A stretch of 64,000 bases of DNA from positions 1-64,000 of the forward strand of contig NZ_FLQX01000035.1 in assembly GCF_900089955.1 (NCBI RefSeq). The letters run 5' to 3'. This document shows, piece after piece, positions 7,665 through 37,552 of this stretch (position 1 is the first letter of the stretch; each line of letters begins with the position of its first letter). The position numbers were made by a program, and so were the translations under genes. Source of the DNA: Candidatus Accumulibacter aalborgensis. GTDB lineage: Bacteria > Pseudomonadota > Gammaproteobacteria > Burkholderiales > Rhodocyclaceae. The notes under the pieces are model-generated. The model was not told where the DNA came from. It made no database searches and saw only the letters and a list, made by a program, of their open reading frames with translations.

Positions 7665-8609
7665 CTAAACGACGGCGCCCTCGTCATTGGCGCCCTCGAT
7701 CTGCTTCTTGGGCCGGATGAACTGCTCGCGCGAGACGCCGAGCCACATGACCAACGGACTGGCTACCAGCACCGACGAGTAGATGCCGAAACAGATGCCG
7801 ATGGTCAGCGCCAGGGCAAAGTAGTGCAGCGTCTCGCCACCGAAGAGCAGCATCGAGAGGACCATCATCTGTGTACAGCCGTGCGTGATGATGGTCCGCG
7901 AAATGGTACTGGTGATCGCGTGGTCCAGCACCTGCGGCGTGGTCAGTCCACGGACTTTCCTGAAGGTCTCGCGGACGCGGTCGAAAACGACGACCGACTC
8001 ATTGACCGAGTAGCCGAGCACGGCAAGGACCGCCGCCAGCACCGACAGCGAGAACTCCCACTGGAAGAAGGCGAAGAAGCCGAGAATGATGATCACATCG
8101 TGCAGGTTGGCGATGATTGCCGACACTGAAAATCGCCACTCGAAACGGAACGAGAGGTACAGGACGATGCCGATGACGACGAGCAACAATGCCAGAGCAC
8201 CGTTTTCTGCCAGTTCACGGCCGACCTGCGGGCCGACGAACTCGACTCGACGCAGCGTGGCGCCGGGCGCCTCGGCATTGAGCGCCTCCATCACCGACTC
8301 GCCGATCTTGGTCGTGTTCTGATCTGCCTTGAGCGGCAGGCGGATCAGGAGATCCTGGCTGGAGCCGAAATTCTGCACCGAGAAGTCGCTGTAGCCCGCC
8401 TTGCCCAGCCCGTCGCGGACTTTTTCCAGATCGGCTGCCTGAGCGTAGTTGAGCTCGATCAAGGTTCCGCCGGTGAATTCGACCGACAGATGCAGGCCGC
8501 GGCTGAACAGGAAGAACACCGCCAGCAAAAAGGTGAGCAGCGAAATGACGTTGAACACCAGCGCATGGCGCATGAACGGGATGTCTTTTCTGATGCGGAA
8601 GAATTCCAT
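7665..8609 (-). CDS. secF: Protein translocase subunit SecF
   Basis: SecF pairs with SecD to form the proton-driven accessory complex that helps SecYEG complete protein export. The 314-residue length is typical. The first membrane segment is at about 19-38 (VISLLTFLLAVFFLFSRG), followed by a periplasmic domain (VEFTGGTLIEL) and a five-helix bundle (LALLLVVIGIVLYLSFRFEW, LGYSVNESVVVFDRVRE, SRTIITHGCTQMMVL). It lies 12 bases after secD in the yajC-secD-secF order. Two pieces of it occur as a decayed chimera at 6855-6978. Confidence 0.97.
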   Translation of the reverse strand: MEFFRIRKDIPFMRHALVFNVISLLTFLLAVFFLFSRGLHLSVEFTGGTLIELNYAQAADLEKVRDGLGKAGYSDFSVQNFGSSQDLLIRLPLKADQNTTKIGESVMEALNAEAPGATLRRVEFVGPQVGRELAENGALALLLVVIGIVLYLSFRFEWRFSVSAIIANLHDVIIILGFFAFFQWEFSLSVLAAVLAVLGYSVNESVVVFDRVRETFRKVRGLTTPQVLDHAITSTISRTIITHGCTQMMVLSMLLFGGETLHYFALALTIGICFGIYSSVLVASPLVMWLGVSREQFIRPKKQIEGANDEGAVV

Positions 8610-8621
8610 CTTCGTGCTTCC

Positions 8622-10499
8622 CTATTTGACTGCCGCAGTGGCGGTGTTGCCGGGTTTCCAGACCTGACCGATGGCCAGCGACTCGACCTTGCGACGACGA
8701 CCGTAGAACAGATTGATCATCGCTCGCGAGACGACCACGGCCGAGAACAGCGAGGTCAGGATCCCGAGGCAGTGCACCACGGCAAAGCCGCGCACCGGGC
8801 CAGAGCCAAAAATCAGCAGCGCGACGCCGGCAATCAGCGTCGTGATGTTCGAGTCGAGGATGGTCCCGAAAGCGCGCTCGTAACCCGTATGGATCGCTGC
8901 CTGCGGACTCGATCCATTGCGCAACTCCTCACGGATCCGCTCGTTGATCAGGACGTTGGCGTCGATCGCCATGCCCAGCGCGAGTGCGATCGCAGCGATT
9001 CCCGGCAGGGTCAGCGTCGCCTGCAACAAGGAGAGCAGGGCGACCAGGAAGAGCAGGTTGGCGGCCAGGGCGATCACCGAGACGAGACCAAAGAGCGCAT
9101 AGTAGGCGATCATGAAAACGGCAATCGCGGTAAAGCCCCACATTGTCGAGTGGAAACCCTTCTGGATGTTCTCGGCTCCCAGGCTTGGGCCGATTGCACG
9201 TTCCTCGATGATCTCCATTGGCGCGGCGAGCGAGCCGGCGCGCAGGAGTAGCGCCGTGTCGTTGGCTTCCATGGTGCTCATGCGGCCGGAGATCTGGACG
9301 CGGCCGCCGCCGATCTCTGCCCGGATGACCGGCGCCGTGACCACTTCGCCCTTGCCCTTCTCGATCAGGACGATGGCCATCCGCTTGCCGACGTTGTCGC
9401 GGGTGATGTCCTTGAAGATGCGCGCCCCGGCCGAATCGAGCGTCAGGTGAACGGCGGGTTCGTGCGTCTGGTTGTCGAAACCCGGCTGTGCGTCGGTCAA
9501 ACGATCACCGGTCAGGACGACCTGTTTCTTGACCAGCAGCGCCATGCCGCCACGCTCGACATACATCTCGGTGCCAAAGGGTGCCTGCCCAGCCTGGGCC
9601 GCTTCGAGGGCGCCGGGGGTGTCATCGACCATCCGGATTTCCAGCGTCGCTGTGCGGCCGAGAATGTCCTTGGCTTTCGCCGTGTCCTGCACGCCCGGCA
9701 ACTGGACGACGATACGGTCAGCGCCTTGCTGCGCGATCACCGGTTCGGCGACGCCGAGTTCATTGATCCGGTTATGCAGCGTGGTCATGTTCTGCCGGAC
9801 CGCGAACTCCTGGATGCGCTTGATCGCCTCGGGCTTCAAGGTGGCGACGAGCTTCAGATCTTCGCCCTCGCCCTGGTCGGCCAGGAGCAGATCCGACTGG
9901 CTATCCTCCAGGAGGATGCGGGCCTTGCTGCGCGTGTCGTTGTCGCGGAAGCGGATGACCACCCGATCACCTTCCCGGGTGATGCCGGCATGGCGAACGG
10001 TCTTGTCGCGCAGCAGGCTGCGGAGATCCGCGCTGATCGAGTCCAGACGTTTGGTAGCCGCGCCCTTCATATCGACCTGGAGCAGGAAATGCACACCGCC
10101 ACGCAGATCGAGGCCGAGGTACATCGGCAGGGCATGCAGGCGAGTCAGCCACTGCGGCGAACTCGAGAGCAGATTCAAGGCGACGACATAGTGCGGGTCG
10201 CTGGGGTCCGGGTTGAACTGTTTCTCGAGCAGGTCCTTGGCCTGCAACTGGCTGTCCGCGCTGGGCAGGCGAACCTTGACGCCGTTGCTGTCGAGGAAGA
10301 GGCCATTACTTTCGATGCCCGCGGCCTGCAGGGTCTTGGCGACGCGCTCGCGCGTCTTGTCATCGACCTTGAGCGTCACCTTGGCGCTGGAAACCTGGAC
10401 CGCAGGTGATTCGCCGAAGAAGTTCGGCAGCGTGTACACCAGGCCGAAGACCAGCGCGACGGCGACGAGGATGTATTTCCAGAGCGGATAGCGGTTCAT
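8622..10499 (-). CDS. secD: Protein translocase subunit SecD
   Basis: This is the larger SecDF component, acting at the inner membrane with a large periplasmic domain. The 625 residues include a first helix at 8-26 (KYILVAVALVFGLVYTLP), the motif LDLRGGVHFLLQVD, a periplasmic P1 domain, and helices with ALGMAIDANVLINERIREE and GSGPVRGFAVVHCLGI. Its 5' codons (10384-10450) recur as a stray fragment at 4121-4187. It is co-directional with yajC (60-base gap) and secF. Confidence 0.97.
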   Translation of the reverse strand: MNRYPLWKYILVAVALVFGLVYTLPNFFGESPAVQVSSAKVTLKVDDKTRERVAKTLQAAGIESNGLFLDSNGVKVRLPSADSQLQAKDLLEKQFNPDPSDPHYVVALNLLSSSPQWLTRLHALPMYLGLDLRGGVHFLLQVDMKGAATKRLDSISADLRSLLRDKTVRHAGITREGDRVVIRFRDNDTRSKARILLEDSQSDLLLADQGEGEDLKLVATLKPEAIKRIQEFAVRQNMTTLHNRINELGVAEPVIAQQGADRIVVQLPGVQDTAKAKDILGRTATLEIRMVDDTPGALEAAQAGQAPFGTEMYVERGGMALLVKKQVVLTGDRLTDAQPGFDNQTHEPAVHLTLDSAGARIFKDITRDNVGKRMAIVLIEKGKGEVVTAPVIRAEIGGGRVQISGRMSTMEANDTALLLRAGSLAAPMEIIEERAIGPSLGAENIQKGFHSTMWGFTAIAVFMIAYYALFGLVSVIALAANLLFLVALLSLLQATLTLPGIAAIALALGMAIDANVLINERIREELRNGSSPQAAIHTGYERAFGTILDSNITTLIAGVALLIFGSGPVRGFAVVHCLGILTSLFSAVVVSRAMINLFYGRRRKVESLAIGQVWKPGNTATAAVK

Positions 10500-23066: not shown

Positions 23067-24989
23067 ATGGACATCGTCAGTCATTTTGCCGCCCGCTTCG
23101 AGCGGACCCGCGAAGAGGAGCTTTCACTGGAAGACTATCTCGCGGCTTGCAAACGGGATCCGCTGAGCTATGCCAGCGCTGCCGAACGGATGCTGCGGGC
23201 GATTGGCGAGCCGCAGACCATAGACACCCGCAAAGACCCGCGGTTGTCACGCCTTTTCGCCAACAAGGTGATCAAGATCTATCCGGCTTTCGCCGAATTC
23301 TACGGCCTAGAAGACGCGATAGAGCAAGTGGTGAGCTACTTCCGCCACGCGGCGCAGGGGCTGGAAGAGAAAAAGCAGATTCTGTACCTGCTCGGTCCGG
23401 TCGGCGGCGGCAAGAGCTCGATCGCCGAACGGCTCAAGTCGCTGATGCAGGAGGTGCCTTTCTACGCGATCAAGGGTTCGCCGGTGAACGAGTCGCCACT
23501 GGGGCTCTTCGATGCCGATGAAGATGCCGCCATCCTCGATAAGGAGTATGGCATCCCACGCCGCTACCTCAACCGCATCCTCTCGCCTTGGGCAGTCAAG
23601 CGTCTGGAAGAATTCGGCGGCGACATCCGCCGCTTCCGGGTGGTCAGGCGCTACCCGAGCGTGCTCAAGCAGATCGGCATCGCCAAGACCGAACCCGGCG
23701 ACGAGAACAACCAGGACATCTCCAGCCTGGTCGGCAAGGTCGACATCCGCAAGCTGGAAACCTACGCCCAGGACGACCCGGACGCCTACAGCTTCTCCGG
23801 TGGTCTGTGCCTGGCCAACCAGGGCTTGCTCGAATTCGTCGAAATGTTCAAGGCGCCGATCAAGGTCCTGCACCCGCTGCTGACCGCCACGCAGGAAGGG
23901 AACTTCAAGGGCACCGAAGGTTTCGGCGCCATTCCCTTCGACGGCATCGTCCTCGCCCACTCCAACGAGAGCGAATGGAAGGCCTTCCGCAACAACAAGA
24001 ACAACGAAGCCTTCCTTGACCGCATCTACATCGTCAAGGTGCCCTACTGCCTGCGCGCCTCAGAGGAAGTGAAGATCTACGAAAAGCTGCTGCGCGGCTC
24101 GTCACTCGCCGAAGCCACCTGCGCTCCGGGAACCCTGCGGATCATGGCGCAGTTCGCGGCCCTGACGCGCCTGAAGGAGCCGGAAAACTCCAGCCTGTAT
24201 TCGAAGATGCTGGTCTACGATGGCGATAACCTCAAGGACACCGACCCGCGGGCGAAAAGCTATCAGGAGTATCGCGACTATGCCGGCGTCGACGAGGGGA
24301 TGAGCGGCATCTCGACGCGCTTCGCCTTCAAGATCCTCAGCAAGGTCTTCAACTTCGACTCGGCCGAGGTCGCCGCCAATCCGGTGCATCTGATGTACGT
24401 CCTCGAACAGCAGATCGAGCGCGAACAGTTCCCGGCCGAAACCGAGGCCAAATATCTGGCGTTCATCAAGGAACACCTGTCGGTGCGCTACGCCGAATTC
24501 ATCGGCAAGGAAATCCAGACGGCCTATCTGGAAAGCTACAGCGAGTACGGCCAGAACATCTTCGACCGTTACGTGACCTACGCCGACTACTGGATCCAGG
24601 ACCAGGAGTATCGCGATACCGATACCGGCGAGGTGTTCGACCGCGCCTCGCTGAATGCCGAACTCGAGAAGATCGAAAAGCCGGCCGGCATCGCCAACCC
24701 GAAGGATTTCCGCAACGAGATCGTCAATTTCGTGCTGCGCGCGCGGGCCAACAACCAGGGCAAGAACCCGCTATGGACCAGCTACGAGAAACTGCGCACG
24801 GTGATCGAGAAAAAGATGTTCTCGAATACCGAAGAGCTACTGCCAGTGATCAGCTTCAACGCCAAGGCCAGCGTCGACGACGTCAAGAAGCACGAAGACT
24901 TCGTCAATCGCATGGTCAACAAGGGCTACACCTCGAAGCAGGTACGCCTGCTGTGCGAGTGGTACCTGCGCGTGCGCAAGAACTCGTGA
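23067..24989 (+). CDS. prkA: PrkA serine protein kinase
   Basis: PrkA (YeaG type) is an AAA-like P-loop Ser/Thr kinase linked to stress and stationary phase. The 640 residues begin at the ATG at 23067 (MDIVSHFAARFERTREEEL). Walker A is LGPVGGGKSS at 110-118, with the AAA_PrkA domain to about residue 360 and the PrkA C-terminal kinase domain after it. It is the first gene of prkA-yeaH-spoVR, a conserved trio; the gap to the next gene is 33 bases. Confidence 0.95.
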   Translation: MDIVSHFAARFERTREEELSLEDYLAACKRDPLSYASAAERMLRAIGEPQTIDTRKDPRLSRLFANKVIKIYPAFAEFYGLEDAIEQVVSYFRHAAQGLEEKKQILYLLGPVGGGKSSIAERLKSLMQEVPFYAIKGSPVNESPLGLFDADEDAAILDKEYGIPRRYLNRILSPWAVKRLEEFGGDIRRFRVVRRYPSVLKQIGIAKTEPGDENNQDISSLVGKVDIRKLETYAQDDPDAYSFSGGLCLANQGLLEFVEMFKAPIKVLHPLLTATQEGNFKGTEGFGAIPFDGIVLAHSNESEWKAFRNNKNNEAFLDRIYIVKVPYCLRASEEVKIYEKLLRGSSLAEATCAPGTLRIMAQFAALTRLKEPENSSLYSKMLVYDGDNLKDTDPRAKSYQEYRDYAGVDEGMSGISTRFAFKILSKVFNFDSAEVAANPVHLMYVLEQQIEREQFPAETEAKYLAFIKEHLSVRYAEFIGKEIQTAYLESYSEYGQNIFDRYVTYADYWIQDQEYRDTDTGEVFDRASLNAELEKIEKPAGIANPKDFRNEIVNFVLRARANNQGKNPLWTSYEKLRTVIEKKMFSNTEELLPVISFNAKASVDDVKKHEDFVNRMVNKGYTSKQVRLLCEWYLRVRKNS

Positions 24990-32733: not shown

Positions 32734-33432
32734 ATGCCAAACTACTACGCAATCGTTCCCGCTGCCGGTATCGGGTCACGCTTCGGCGGCGAAACGCCAA
32801 AACAGTACCGCTTACTAGCCGGGCGACCCATGCTCTACCACAGCCTCGCAGCCGTCTGCCGCTGCCCGCGCATTGATCGCGTCTGGGTGGTTCTTTCCCC
32901 AGACGATACCTGCTGGCGACAGCACGACTGGACAAGTCTCGGCTACAAACTGGAGACCGTTTTCTGTGGTGGCACGACACGATCCGAAAGCGTTGCCAAT
33001 GGCCTGCACGCCGCCGCGACCGCCGCCGATGACGACGACTGGGTGCTGGTGCACGACGCCGCGCGACCCTGCCTGTCGCAAGCGATGCTGGCTGCGCTGT
33101 GTGACGAACTGGCCGGCGATCCAGTAGGCGGCATTCTCGCCGTGCCAGTGGCCGATACCCTGAAGCGCGCCGACGCCGACCAGTGCATCGCGAGTACCGA
33201 GTCGCGCGACGGCCTGTGGCAGGCACAGACCCCACAGATGTTCCGCTACGGACTGCTGACCCGCGTGCTGGCCGAGCACCGGGGCTGCACCGACGAAGCC
33301 TCCGCGATGGAGGCCGCCGGCTGCAGACCGAGGCTGGTTTGTGCCGACGCCAGCAACCTCAAGGTGACTTATCCGGCCGATTTACGCCTGGCCGAGACGA
33401 TCTTGCAGGCGAGAATACGGGTAGACGAATGA
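32734..33432 (+). CDS. ispD: 2-C-methyl-D-erythritol 4-phosphate cytidylyltransferase
   Basis: IspD makes CDP-methylerythritol in the non-mevalonate isoprenoid pathway. The 232 residues carry [19 protein letters not shown] (nucleotide binding), [24 protein letters not shown] and [11 protein letters not shown]. It overlaps ispF by four bases and follows meh by 10 bases, so co-transcription with meh is possible. Confidence 0.97.
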
Positions 33433-33908
33433 TCCGTATCGGACAAGGCTGCGATATTCACGCGCTGGTTCCTGGCCGCAGAATGATTCTCGGCGGCGTC
33501 GAGATCGCGCATCACAGCGGACTGCTCGGCCATTCCGACGCCGATGCGCTGCTGCACGCCGTTACTGACGCGCTGCTTGGCGCGGCAGCGCTCGGCGACA
33601 TCGGCCGCCATTTTCCCGAAACCGACGAGCGTTATCGAGGCGCCGATAGCCGGCAACTGCTGCGCGCGACGCTCGCGCTGCTGGCCCAGGACGGCTGGCG
33701 GGTGGGTAACGTCGACGCGACGATCATCGCTCAACAGCCGAGAATGGCGCCTTATCTGCCGCAAATGGTAGCCAACATCGCTGCCGACCTGCAGGTAGCC
33801 GCAAGCTGCGTCAACGTCAAGGCGAAAACCGCTGAACGCTTGGGTTTTATCGGGCGAGGGGAGGGTGTCGCGACCGAAGCAGTGGTGCTGATTAGCCGAG
33901 ACGTCTGA
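33429..33908 (+). CDS. ispF: 2-C-methyl-D-erythritol 2,4-cyclodiphosphate synthase
   Basis: The 159-residue enzyme catalyses cyclisation two steps after IspD. Zinc ligands lie in GCDIHAL (Asp, His) and [18 protein letters not shown], with DIGRHFP also present. Near the end are [19 protein letters not shown] and a typical C-terminus. The ATG overlaps the ispD stop. Confidence 0.97.
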
Positions 33909-34040
33909 GACTGGGAGAAGCCGATCATGCTGGAGGATGACTTCGTCACAGGGTAGTTCGAATTCGCGTGGAATGCGCAAGGCCTGGTTACGTCCATTAC
34001 GAAACAGCCGGGCGTGCCGTTCTTTAGCAGTATTGGCCAT
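33909..34040 (-). pseudogene. VapB-type antitoxin remnant
   Basis: The minus strand reads MANTAKERHARLFRNGRNQA then LRIPREFELPCDEVILQHD, the AbrB-fold N-terminus of VapB antitoxins. The C-terminal toxin-binding part is replaced by sequence running antisense into ispF, and no partner vapC follows. Confidence 0.55.
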
Positions 34041-34125
34041 CAGGAAATCCCTGAAGTTAACATAGGCCAAGCATCTGCCTTGAATGAGCGGTCGTCAAGC
34101 TACGCTCTCTATGGCAAGTGCGTGT

Positions 34126-34153
34126 ACTTTACATAATACAAATTATGCGAAGT
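34126..34153 (-). other. dif-like XerC/XerD recombination site
   Basis: On the minus strand the site reads XerC arm ACTTCGCATAA, six-base centre TTTGTA, XerD arm TTATGTAAAGT. Against Escherichia coli dif (CGCATAA core, 6-base centre, TTATGTTAAAT) the XerD arm matches 9 of 11 bases and the inner XerC arm is identical; the 28-base length and spacing are exact. It may be the chromosomal dif in the replication terminus, or a mobile dif site carrying the neighbouring toxin-antitoxin genes. Confidence 0.7.
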
Positions 34154-34316
34154 CAGAGCAACTTGTCCGCCGGTCCCTGATGAGGCTCATATACTCTCAA
34201 TGGTGCCGTTGGATTTCCTATCCTTCAGACCGAGTAACGGACTCAGAAAGACGCTCTTGAGCAACGCCACCGCGAAATCGGCACTCCGCTACCTTCGGTG
34301 CCGCGTGGCGGCACCT

Positions 34317-34733
34317 CTACGCTTCCCACGGATTGATGACGGTGACGCTGGCGGCCTCATAGGGAGCCGTGTCGCGTGACGCCACGATGAACCTCCGCGA
34401 AGCTGCAATCGCGGCGATGTAGCCGTCAGGTGTCGGGAATCCTCGTCCGCCGGCCTTGGCTGTCACAGCCAGCTCGGCATAGCACCGTGCTGCATCAGTG
34501 TCGAATGGCAGCACCCGATCCCTGAACAGTCCCATCAGACCGTCAAGGGCCTGTGTCAACATGTCCTTGCGCTTGCCGCCTGGGAGCGCCCCGATGCCAA
34601 ACAGAAGCTCTGCCAGCGTCACACTGGACAGATACAGCGTTTCGGCGACTTGTTCATTCAGCCAGGCCCGCACGGCCGGATGCGGCTCGGGTTTCATCGC
34701 CTCGGAAACGACATTGGTATCGAGGATGATCAT
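34317..34733 (-). CDS. PIN-domain toxin (FitB/VapC type)
   Basis: The 138-residue ribonuclease toxin has PIN acidic residues in MIILDTNVVSE (Asp5), SSVTLAELLFGI (Glu), FDTDAARCYAEL (Asp) and TPDGYIAAIAASR (Asp). Four-base overlap with the upstream antitoxin gives one operon. It appears complete. Confidence 0.9.
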   Translation of the reverse strand: MIILDTNVVSEAMKPEPHPAVRAWLNEQVAETLYLSSVTLAELLFGIGALPGGKRKDMLTQALDGLMGLFRDRVLPFDTDAARCYAELAVTAKAGGRGFPTPDGYIAAIAASRRFIVASRDTAPYEAASVTVINPWEA

Positions 34734-34984
34734 TCAAACCTCAGCGGCTCGGCCGGTGTCTTGTCTCTCCCTTGGTTGAAGACCTCGTAATCCTCGTTTG
34801 TCAGGCCGATCTTGCGGCCCAATGCCGCGAGGGCTTCACCCAGGCGAACGCGCGCCTCTGGCTTGACCGCGATCGCCAGAATCTCGCGGACCTCGGCCTC
34901 AGTGCTATGCCCATGTTGAGCGGCCCGCACCCGTAATGCGCGGTGTACGTCGTCGGGCAAATTACGTACTGTCAGCATTGCCAT
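34730..34984 (-). CDS. FitA-type ribbon-helix-helix antitoxin
   Basis: The 84-residue protein opens with the DNA-binding MLTVRNLPDDVHRALRVRAA and HGHSTEAEVREILAIAV, as in FitA/plasmid stability proteins; the C-terminal tail would wrap the PIN toxin. The ATG at 34984 is used; the one two codons later is equally possible. The palindrome at 35012-35038 directly upstream is probably its operator. Confidence 0.88.
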   Translation of the reverse strand: MAMLTVRNLPDDVHRALRVRAAQHGHSTEAEVREILAIAVKPEARVRLGEALAALGRKIGLTNEDYEVFNQGRDKTPAEPLRFE

Positions 34985-35011
34985 AGCGGCACCTCACAAA
35001 GATACACTCGA

Positions 35012-35038
35012 TGCATTCATTTTACTAAAATGTATGCA
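35012..35038. promoter_or_regulatory. Operator palindrome of the FitAB-type operon
   Basis: Inverted repeat TGCATTCATTTTA / TAAAATGTATGCA, 13 bases per arm around one central base with one mismatch, lies 27 bases upstream of the antitoxin ATG. Autorepression by ribbon-helix-helix antitoxins through such repeats is well known. Confidence 0.7.
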
Positions 35039-35160
35039 ATCCTTCAAGGCTGGCTGAGCGCGTTAGCCATGTCATCAGGGGCGATTCAGTGGTAAATTGC
35101 AGGGCGGCAGGTCCATCGGTCCATCCTGTCGCTGACTTCAACTTTCGCCTTCGCTCTCCT

Positions 35161-36045
35161 ATGCCACAGATTACTGCCAACAAGCTGCAATTCGAATATG
35201 AAACCTTTGGCGACGCGTCGGCGCCGGCCGTCCTGCTGATCATGGGACTTGGCGCGCAACTGGGTCGCTGGAATATCGAACTCTGTGAGGCACTTGTCGA
35301 CCGCGGTTTTCGCGTCATTCGCTTCGACAACCGCGACTGCGGCCTGTCGAGCAAGCTCGACGAGGCGGACGTTCCGGATGTCGGCCAGGCACTGCGCACC
35401 GGCACAGCACCGATGGCACCCTACGCACTGGAAGACATGGCGGCTGACAGCGTCGGTCTGCTCGACGCGCTGGGTATCGACTCGGCGCATATCGTCGGCG
35501 CGTCGATGGGTGGCGCGATCGCCCAGATCATTGCCGCGCTTTACCCGCAGCGCACGCTGTCGTTGACCTGCATCATGACCACCAGCGGCCATCCCGAGCT
35601 GCCGCCGCCGACGCGCGAGGCGGCGCAGGCGCTGTTTGCGCCATTGCCGGCGGCTCGCGACAAGGACAGCCTGGTGGAAGACGCCATGCGGCGCCAATTG
35701 GCTGTCGCCAGCCCCGATTTCCCGAGTTGTCCGCAGCGCCTGCGGGACTTGCTCACCGAGGAGCATGAGCGCGGCTTCCACCCGCGCGGGGTGACGCGCC
35801 AACTGGCGGCCTTCCTGGCCAGCGATCATCGCCGCGATCTGCTGCAGACGATCCGCGTGCCGACGCTCGTTGTGCACGGTGCTGAAGACCCACTGATTCC
35901 GGTTGCCTGCGGTTACGATGTCGCCGCCCACATCGCCGGTGCAGAAATCCGGGTGATCGAGGGCATGGGCCATGATCTTCCGCTGGCCCTGACCGACGTT
36001 TTCGCCGATGCCATCGCTACCGTGGCGCATGCGCGACAAGCCTGA
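35161..36045 (+). CDS. Alpha/beta hydrolase
   Basis: The 294-residue enzyme has the nucleophile elbow GASMGG (Ser115), a probable acid in VVHGAEDPLIPV, and the catalytic His in EGMGHDLP; the oxyanion region is LIMGLGAQLGRW. It is a single soluble domain with no signal peptide. The substrate cannot be predicted. The ATG at 35161 is used; the upstream in-frame extension is non-conserved-looking. Confidence 0.85.
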   Translation: MPQITANKLQFEYETFGDASAPAVLLIMGLGAQLGRWNIELCEALVDRGFRVIRFDNRDCGLSSKLDEADVPDVGQALRTGTAPMAPYALEDMAADSVGLLDALGIDSAHIVGASMGGAIAQIIAALYPQRTLSLTCIMTTSGHPELPPPTREAAQALFAPLPAARDKDSLVEDAMRRQLAVASPDFPSCPQRLRDLLTEEHERGFHPRGVTRQLAAFLASDHRRDLLQTIRVPTLVVHGAEDPLIPVACGYDVAAHIAGAEIRVIEGMGHDLPLALTDVFADAIATVAHARQA

Positions 36046-36121
36046 GTCCCGTGTGCCCATCCTCGGCCACCCGCCGGCTGCCGTGCCCAGCCTGCTGGCA
36101 ACGCACGCTTCCTGAGTGCCG

Positions 36122-37552
36122 ATGAACGCGGTCCTCGCTCCGGAACCGCTGGTCTTCGTCGATCTTGAAACCAGCGGAGCGAATTTTGCAAACGATCGGA
36201 TCATCGAAATCGGCCTGGTCGAAGTGGATGCCGAGGGTGTCCGTGAATGGAGCGTTCTGGTCGACCCCGAAACGCCGATCTCGGCCTTCATTACCGGCCT
36301 GACCGGCATCGACGACGCCATGCTCTCCGGCGCAGCGACTTTCCGGCAACTGGCACCGACGTTGCTGGACAGGCTGAGCGGACGCCTGTTCATCGCCCAC
36401 AATGCGCGCTTCGATTACGGCTTCCTGCAGCGCGAGTTCAAGCGACTGGGCCTCGACTTCCGCGCACCGGCGCTTTGTACCGTCAAGCTGTCGCGCAAAC
36501 TCTTTCCCGAACACCACCGGCACAGTCTGGATACACTGGTCGCGCGTCACGGTCTGAGGGTGGGCGGCAGTCGCCACCGCGCCCTTCCCGACGCGCGCCT
36601 GTTGTGGGATCTATGGCAGTGCTGGCATCAGCAACTGCCGAGCGAAACGATCCGCTGCGCGGTCACGGCCATCGTTGGTCGTCCGGACCTGCCGCCGCAA
36701 CTCGATGCGGCGCTGATCGACGACCTGCCCGAGGCGGCCGGTGCTTATGCGTTTTTCGGCGACGACGGCCGCTTGCTGCTGAGCAGGCGCAGCAGCAACA
36801 TTCGGCAGCAGGTGCTGGCCCATTTCACTGCCGCCAACCGCGAAACCCCCTTGGTTCGCGACACCTGGCGCATCGATTGGCGAGATGCTGCAGGCGAACT
36901 GGGCGCGCGTTTGCGGGAGATTGAACTTCAACTCGCCGCCTCACCGTCTGCCGCCAGTTCAAGTCCGTGGCCGCGTCCAGCGGCCGATGAACTGTGCTCC
37001 TGGCAGTTGCTGCAGGCTGCCAAAGGCGATTTCCGGCCGCAACTCGTTGTCGCCGCGGAAGTTGATTTCGCTTTGGCCGACGACCTGTTCGGCTTCTACC
37101 CAAATCGCCGCGAAGCCTTGCGAGCCTTGCGCAAGCTGGCTGACGCCCATCACCTGTGCCACCGCCAGTTGGGGCTAGAGGAAACGGCACGAGGAGAAGC
37201 CTGCGCCGCCTACAGGCAGAAGAACTGTCGCGGCGTCTGCATCGGTAAGGAAGCCGTGGCGCTGCATAGCGCCCGGCTGCTGACCGCGCTGGCCAAGTTC
37301 AAAGTGAAGGTCTGGCCCTACAAGGGGCCGCTGGCGCTAATTGAACGCGACGAGTTCGGAATGCGCGAAGATATTCACCTGGTCGACCGCTGGCGCCATG
37401 TTGGCACAGTACACAGCGAAGAGGCGCTGCAGGCCTGCCTCGCGAATGGCCCCAGCGGCCTCGGCTTCGACCCCGACATCTACCGCATCATCCACAAGGC
37501 ACTGCAGGCCGGCAAAGTCCGCATTCGCGCCCTGCCCCCTTTTTCACCTTGA
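36122..37552 (+). CDS. DnaQ-like 3'-5' exonuclease with UvrC-like GIY-YIG-type domain
   Basis: Residues 1-170 form an epsilon-type DEDDh exonuclease (FVDLETSG, NDRIIEIG, HNARFDYGFL, HRALPDARLL). A region starting near 200 (LPEAAGAYAFFGDDGRLL then LSRRSSNIRQQVLAHF) aligns in layout with GIY-YIG nucleases of the Cho/UvrC kind, but the second motif (normally YVGKS) reads LLSRR, so its nuclease site looks lost. The C-terminus includes CRGVCIGKE. The start at the ATG 36122 is preferred to GTG 36116. It probably acts in DNA repair or proofreading. The 3' ends overlap the ankyrin gene by nine bases. Confidence 0.85.
   Translation: MNAVLAPEPLVFVDLETSGANFANDRIIEIGLVEVDAEGVREWSVLVDPETPISAFITGLTGIDDAMLSGAATFRQLAPTLLDRLSGRLFIAHNARFDYGFLQREFKRLGLDFRAPALCTVKLSRKLFPEHHRHSLDTLVARHGLRVGGSRHRALPDARLLWDLWQCWHQQLPSETIRCAVTAIVGRPDLPPQLDAALIDDLPEAAGAYAFFGDDGRLLLSRRSSNIRQQVLAHFTAANRETPLVRDTWRIDWRDAAGELGARLREIELQLAASPSAASSSPWPRPAADELCSWQLLQAAKGDFRPQLVVAAEVDFALADDLFGFYPNRREALRALRKLADAHHLCHRQLGLEETARGEACAAYRQKNCRGVCIGKEAVALHSARLLTALAKFKVKVWPYKGPLALIERDEFGMREDIHLVDRWRHVGTVHSEEALQACLANGPSGLGFDPDIYRIIHKALQAGKVRIRALPPFSP

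What the first reader, a model, noticed from the sequence alone, without database searches (positions are those of the whole stretch)
34126..34153. Candidate dif site beside toxin-antitoxin genes
The 28-base sequence has the XerC arm, 6-base centre and XerD arm of dif with a 9/11 match in the conserved XerD arm. If chromosomal, the window is in the replication terminus; if mobile, the FitAB-type pair and VapB remnant nearby would fit a Xer-mobilised module.
Basis: partly seen in the sequence, partly recalled or inferred. Interest (0 to 1): 0.7.

Follow-up and report, generated by a model that had tools for sequence, protein, structure and literature searches.

The report
Ordinary chromosomal dif site, replication terminus
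This 28-base sequence is the normal site where an Accumulibacter-type bacterium separates joined chromosome copies at the end of replication; it is real and well conserved but ordinary, and the toxin-antitoxin genes beside it are an unrelated neighbour.

Summary
The 28 bases at 34126-34153 are a dif site, reading XerC arm-centre-XerD arm on the minus strand (ACTTCGCATAA TTTGTA TTATGTAAAGT). It is the only such site in the 4.7 Mb genome, even with 3 mismatches. A matrix built from other genomes scores it 53.8 bits; the next independent site on the 230 kb contig scores -1.8. Of 53 good-quality genomes searched (own and relatives), 36 have a match, nearly always exactly one, and the flanks outside the 28 bases diverge freely. 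GGGNAGGG (KOPS) motifs point inward 29:4, and their best switch point (34.0-36.4 kb) brackets the site; cumulative GC skew on the contig peaks 10.6 kb away. In two complete same-genus chromosomes the site lies 1.5 and 3.4 kb from the local skew peak and 50% and 58% of the circle from dnaA. The genome encodes XerC, XerD and FtsK-gamma. The Xer-mobilised module is not supported: no second dif-like site surrounds the toxin-antitoxin genes, and relatives with the same dif and neighbouring genes lack them. The site is an unremarkable new member of a known kind. Interest is low.

The parts
34126..34153 (-). dif site: XerC arm 34143-34153, centre 34137-34142, XerD arm 34126-34136 (XerC-to-XerD order on the minus strand)
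33858..36589 (.). Interval between the last inward-pointing KOPS (GGGNAGGG) on the plus strand (33858) and the first on the minus strand (36582); contains dif
33429..33908 (+). ispF (YgbB family), flanking housekeeping gene on the XerD-arm side; not part of dif
33927..34040 (-). VapB-like antitoxin fragment (about 30 residues of homology); neighbour only
34317..34733 (-). PIN-domain (VapC/FitB-type) toxin gene; neighbour, absent at dif in relatives
34730..34984 (-). FitA-like ribbon-helix-helix antitoxin gene; neighbour, absent at dif in relatives
35164..36045 (+). alpha/beta hydrolase gene, the conserved gene next to dif on the XerC-arm side in nine relatives

Best explanation
The 28 bp are the primary chromosomal dif site of this Accumulibacter-lineage betaproteobacterium. 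KOPS motifs on both replichores direct the FtsK translocase to it at the closing septum. FtsK-gamma then activates XerD, and XerC/XerD recombine two dif copies, turning a chromosome dimer into monomers. Sequence, position, polarity and the presence of the enzymes are shown here; the loading, activation and recombination steps are inferred from the E. coli system.
For: Unique 28-mer in the genome. 36 of 53 good-quality genomes in the relatives search (own genome included) have a match within 2 mismatches, nearly always one. The 28 bp are the only conserved block, with different flanks in 22 relatives. It scores 53.8 bits with a matrix from 103 sites of other genomes; next independent site -1.8. 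KOPS point inward 29:4, the most polar of the 56 permutations of that motif, with the switch at 34.0-36.4 kb. Cumulative GC skew of the contig peaks at 23.5 kb. In complete relatives: G015 local skew peak 1.5 kb from dif and dnaA 50.0% of the circle away; G009 3.4 kb and 57.6%; G043 dif 48.2% from dnaA. XerC, XerD and FtsK-gamma are each over the curated cut-off. The published dif of Dechloromonas aromatica (PMC2731167) matches 22/28.
Against: The genome is in 181 contigs, so a genome-wide skew plot and the distance from oriC could not be measured directly. The local skew peak is 10.6 kb away, although this lies within the interquartile range (2-21 kb) reported for proteobacteria (PMC2731167). 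17 of 53 good genomes lacked a match at 2 mismatches, which may be divergence beyond the pattern or assembly gaps.
Confidence: 0.97

Rival explanations
1. The site is a mobile dif-like (pdif) site that brought in the FitAB-type pair as a Xer-mobilised module, as in Acinetobacter dif modules.
For: A toxin-antitoxin pair and a VapB fragment lie within 1 kb, and in five of nine relatives that keep the neighbouring hydrolase it starts within about 0.2 kb of dif, so the pair looks inserted on the XerC side.
Against: No second dif-like site around the pair: the best other independent local score is -16.5 against 53.8, and none in the genome within 3 mismatches. The site itself is widespread in the lineage without the pair. 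XerC-side inserts in other relatives are unrelated genes.
Confidence: 0.02
2. Chance AT-rich palindrome, for example a regulator operator or terminator.
For: It is AT-rich and partly palindromic in a 62% GC window.
Against: The arm sequences match the family position by position in dozens of species with unrelated flanking sequence, and simulations never approach its score.
Confidence: 0.005

Closest known systems
dif of Dechloromonas aromatica RCB (AACGCGCATAATTTGCATTATGTTAAAT, PMC2731167 Table 1)
   Same: 28-mer layout, XerC and XerD arms, intergenic, near the skew maximum, related lineage
   Different: 22/28 identical; the six differences lie in the outer arm bases and one centre base
dif of E. 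coli K-12
   Same: XerC arm ending CGCATAA, XerD arm TTATGT.AA.T, XerCD/FtsK-gamma machinery and GGGNAGGG polarity
   Different: 21/28 identical; different centre bases and outer arm bases
Acinetobacter pdif/dif modules
   Same: XerC/D site next to toxin-antitoxin genes
   Different: Those modules are bounded by XerC/D sites on both sides; here there is one chromosomal site only

Membership tests
Proteobacterial chromosomal dif (XerCD) | 28-mer similar to a known dif of a close taxon, with conserved XerD arm | tested here: met
   22/28 to Dechloromonas dif, XerD arm 9/11 to E. coli, 53.8 bits
Proteobacterial chromosomal dif (XerCD) | Single copy in the chromosome | tested here: met
   one match within 3 mismatches in 4.7 Mb
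Proteobacterial chromosomal dif (XerCD) | Near the replication terminus (maximum of cumulative GC skew) | tested here: met
   contig maximum 10.6 kb away; 1.5 and 3.4 kb in complete relatives. The genome-wide maximum of this fragmented genome could not be tested
Proteobacterial chromosomal dif (XerCD) | Present in related strains and species | tested here: met
Proteobacterial chromosomal dif (XerCD) | Intergenic location | tested here: met
   between ispF and the PIN toxin gene
Proteobacterial chromosomal dif (XerCD) | XerC, XerD and FtsK-gamma encoded; KOPS polarity converges on the site | tested here: met
   KOPS 29:4 inward
Proteobacterial chromosomal dif (XerCD) | XerCD binding and recombination | not testable with these tools
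   needs a bench assay
pdif/dif mobile module | Cargo bounded by two XerC/D sites | tested here: not met
   only one site

The most novel reading that the evidence does not exclude
The toxin-antitoxin pair was captured beside dif by a Xer-dependent event whose second site has since decayed beyond recognition.
Probability: 0.02. Interest if true: 0.3.

Novelty: new member of a known kind. Interest (0 to 1): 0.1.

Why it matters
It fixes the replication terminus of this unfinished genome and gives the lineage's dif consensus (mostly with a TTTGTA centre), useful for ordering contigs and for spotting filamentous phages that integrate at dif. It changes no general understanding.

Tried and rejected
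Looked for a second dif-like site flanking the toxin-antitoxin genes and across the contig and genome: none. Looked for the same toxin-antitoxin pair beside dif in 22 relatives: none. Looked at XerC-side inserts in other relatives for a shared mobile module: ordinary unrelated genes. One literature search found no paper that clearly treats dif in Accumulibacter (only ten of 173 partial matches were listed).

Full report
Observation. On the minus strand it reads ACTTCGCATAA-TTTGTA-TTATGTAAAGT, that is XerC arm, centre, XerD arm, with 21/28 identity to E. coli dif and 22/28 to the published Dechloromonas aromatica dif. The plus-strand reading is poorer (17/28). No shuffled window gives a match within 3 mismatches.

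Uniqueness and strength. The genome (4.7 Mb, 181 contigs, completeness listed as 100) has this one site only, even at 3 mismatches over the 22 arm bases. A position matrix from 103 sites of other genomes gives 53.8 bits here; the next independent site on the 230 kb contig scores -1.8, and the best of 20 first-order Markov simulations of the contig is 9.6.

Terminus evidence. The window is the first 64 kb of contig C35 (230,652 bases). Cumulative GC skew peaks at 23,526 and falls nearly throughout the remaining 200 kb. GGGNAGGG motifs (E. coli KOPS) point towards the site 29 times and away 4 times; this motif is the most polar of the 56 permutations with the same composition, and the switch point that fits best is 34,000-36,400. 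Because general G-richness on the leading strand also gives polarity, the excess over the permuted motifs (88% against 66% inward, p about 0.004) is the fair measure.

Relatives. 36 of 53 good-quality genomes in the relatives search (61 in all, including the window's own) have a match within 2 mismatches, nearly always one per genome. Aligned on the site, the 28 bp are the only conserved block; the bases immediately outside differ in nearly every species. In the complete chromosomes G015 and G009 the local skew peak is 1.5 and 3.4 kb from dif, with KOPS polarity of 21:3 and 28:7 inward, and dif lies 50.0% and 57.6% of the circle from dnaA; in G043, of another family, 48.2%.

Machinery. XerC, XerD and an FtsK-gamma domain each exceed their curated cut-offs.

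The toxin-antitoxin genes. The pair at 34317-34984 is a PIN toxin with a FitA-like RHH antitoxin; an inverted repeat (TGCATtcaTTTTactAAAAtgtATGCA, about 35011-35037) upstream of it looks like its operator (inference). A VapB-like fragment lies beside the ispF stop. In nine relatives the gene order dif-hydrolase-exonuclease is shared without this pair, the gap from dif ranging from tens of bases to 1.9 kb with different contents. So the pair is most simply a local insertion near dif. No second Xer site accompanies it, so Xer mobilisation is not supported.

Verdict. An ordinary primary dif. The in-silico criteria of Carnoy and Roten (PMC2731167) that can be tested here are met; XerCD binding and recombination were not tested.

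Noticed in passing
L194:4-25 and L195:9900-9921 (IMG/VR contigs): Two metagenomic filamentous-phage contigs (Zot-like, rolling-circle replication and, in L195, pIV-like proteins) carry the same dif core near one contig end, as expected of inoviruses that integrate at dif using host XerCD.
   Followed up: partly
window 33927-34040 minus: N-terminal fragment of a VapB-like antitoxin beside the ispF stop; suggests decay of an older toxin-antitoxin locus.
   Followed up: partly
L098 (relative G004) 7677-10023: ispD-ispF lies on the XerC-arm side of dif here but on the XerD-arm side in the window, and many relatives show neither gene within 9 kb: gene order around the terminus is rearranged often.
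   Followed up: partly
G054:C5:166-191 and G054:C11:3-28: An order-level relative has a dif-like site at the ends of two contigs, as an assembly break at a repeated dif (integrated element) would give.
   Followed up: no
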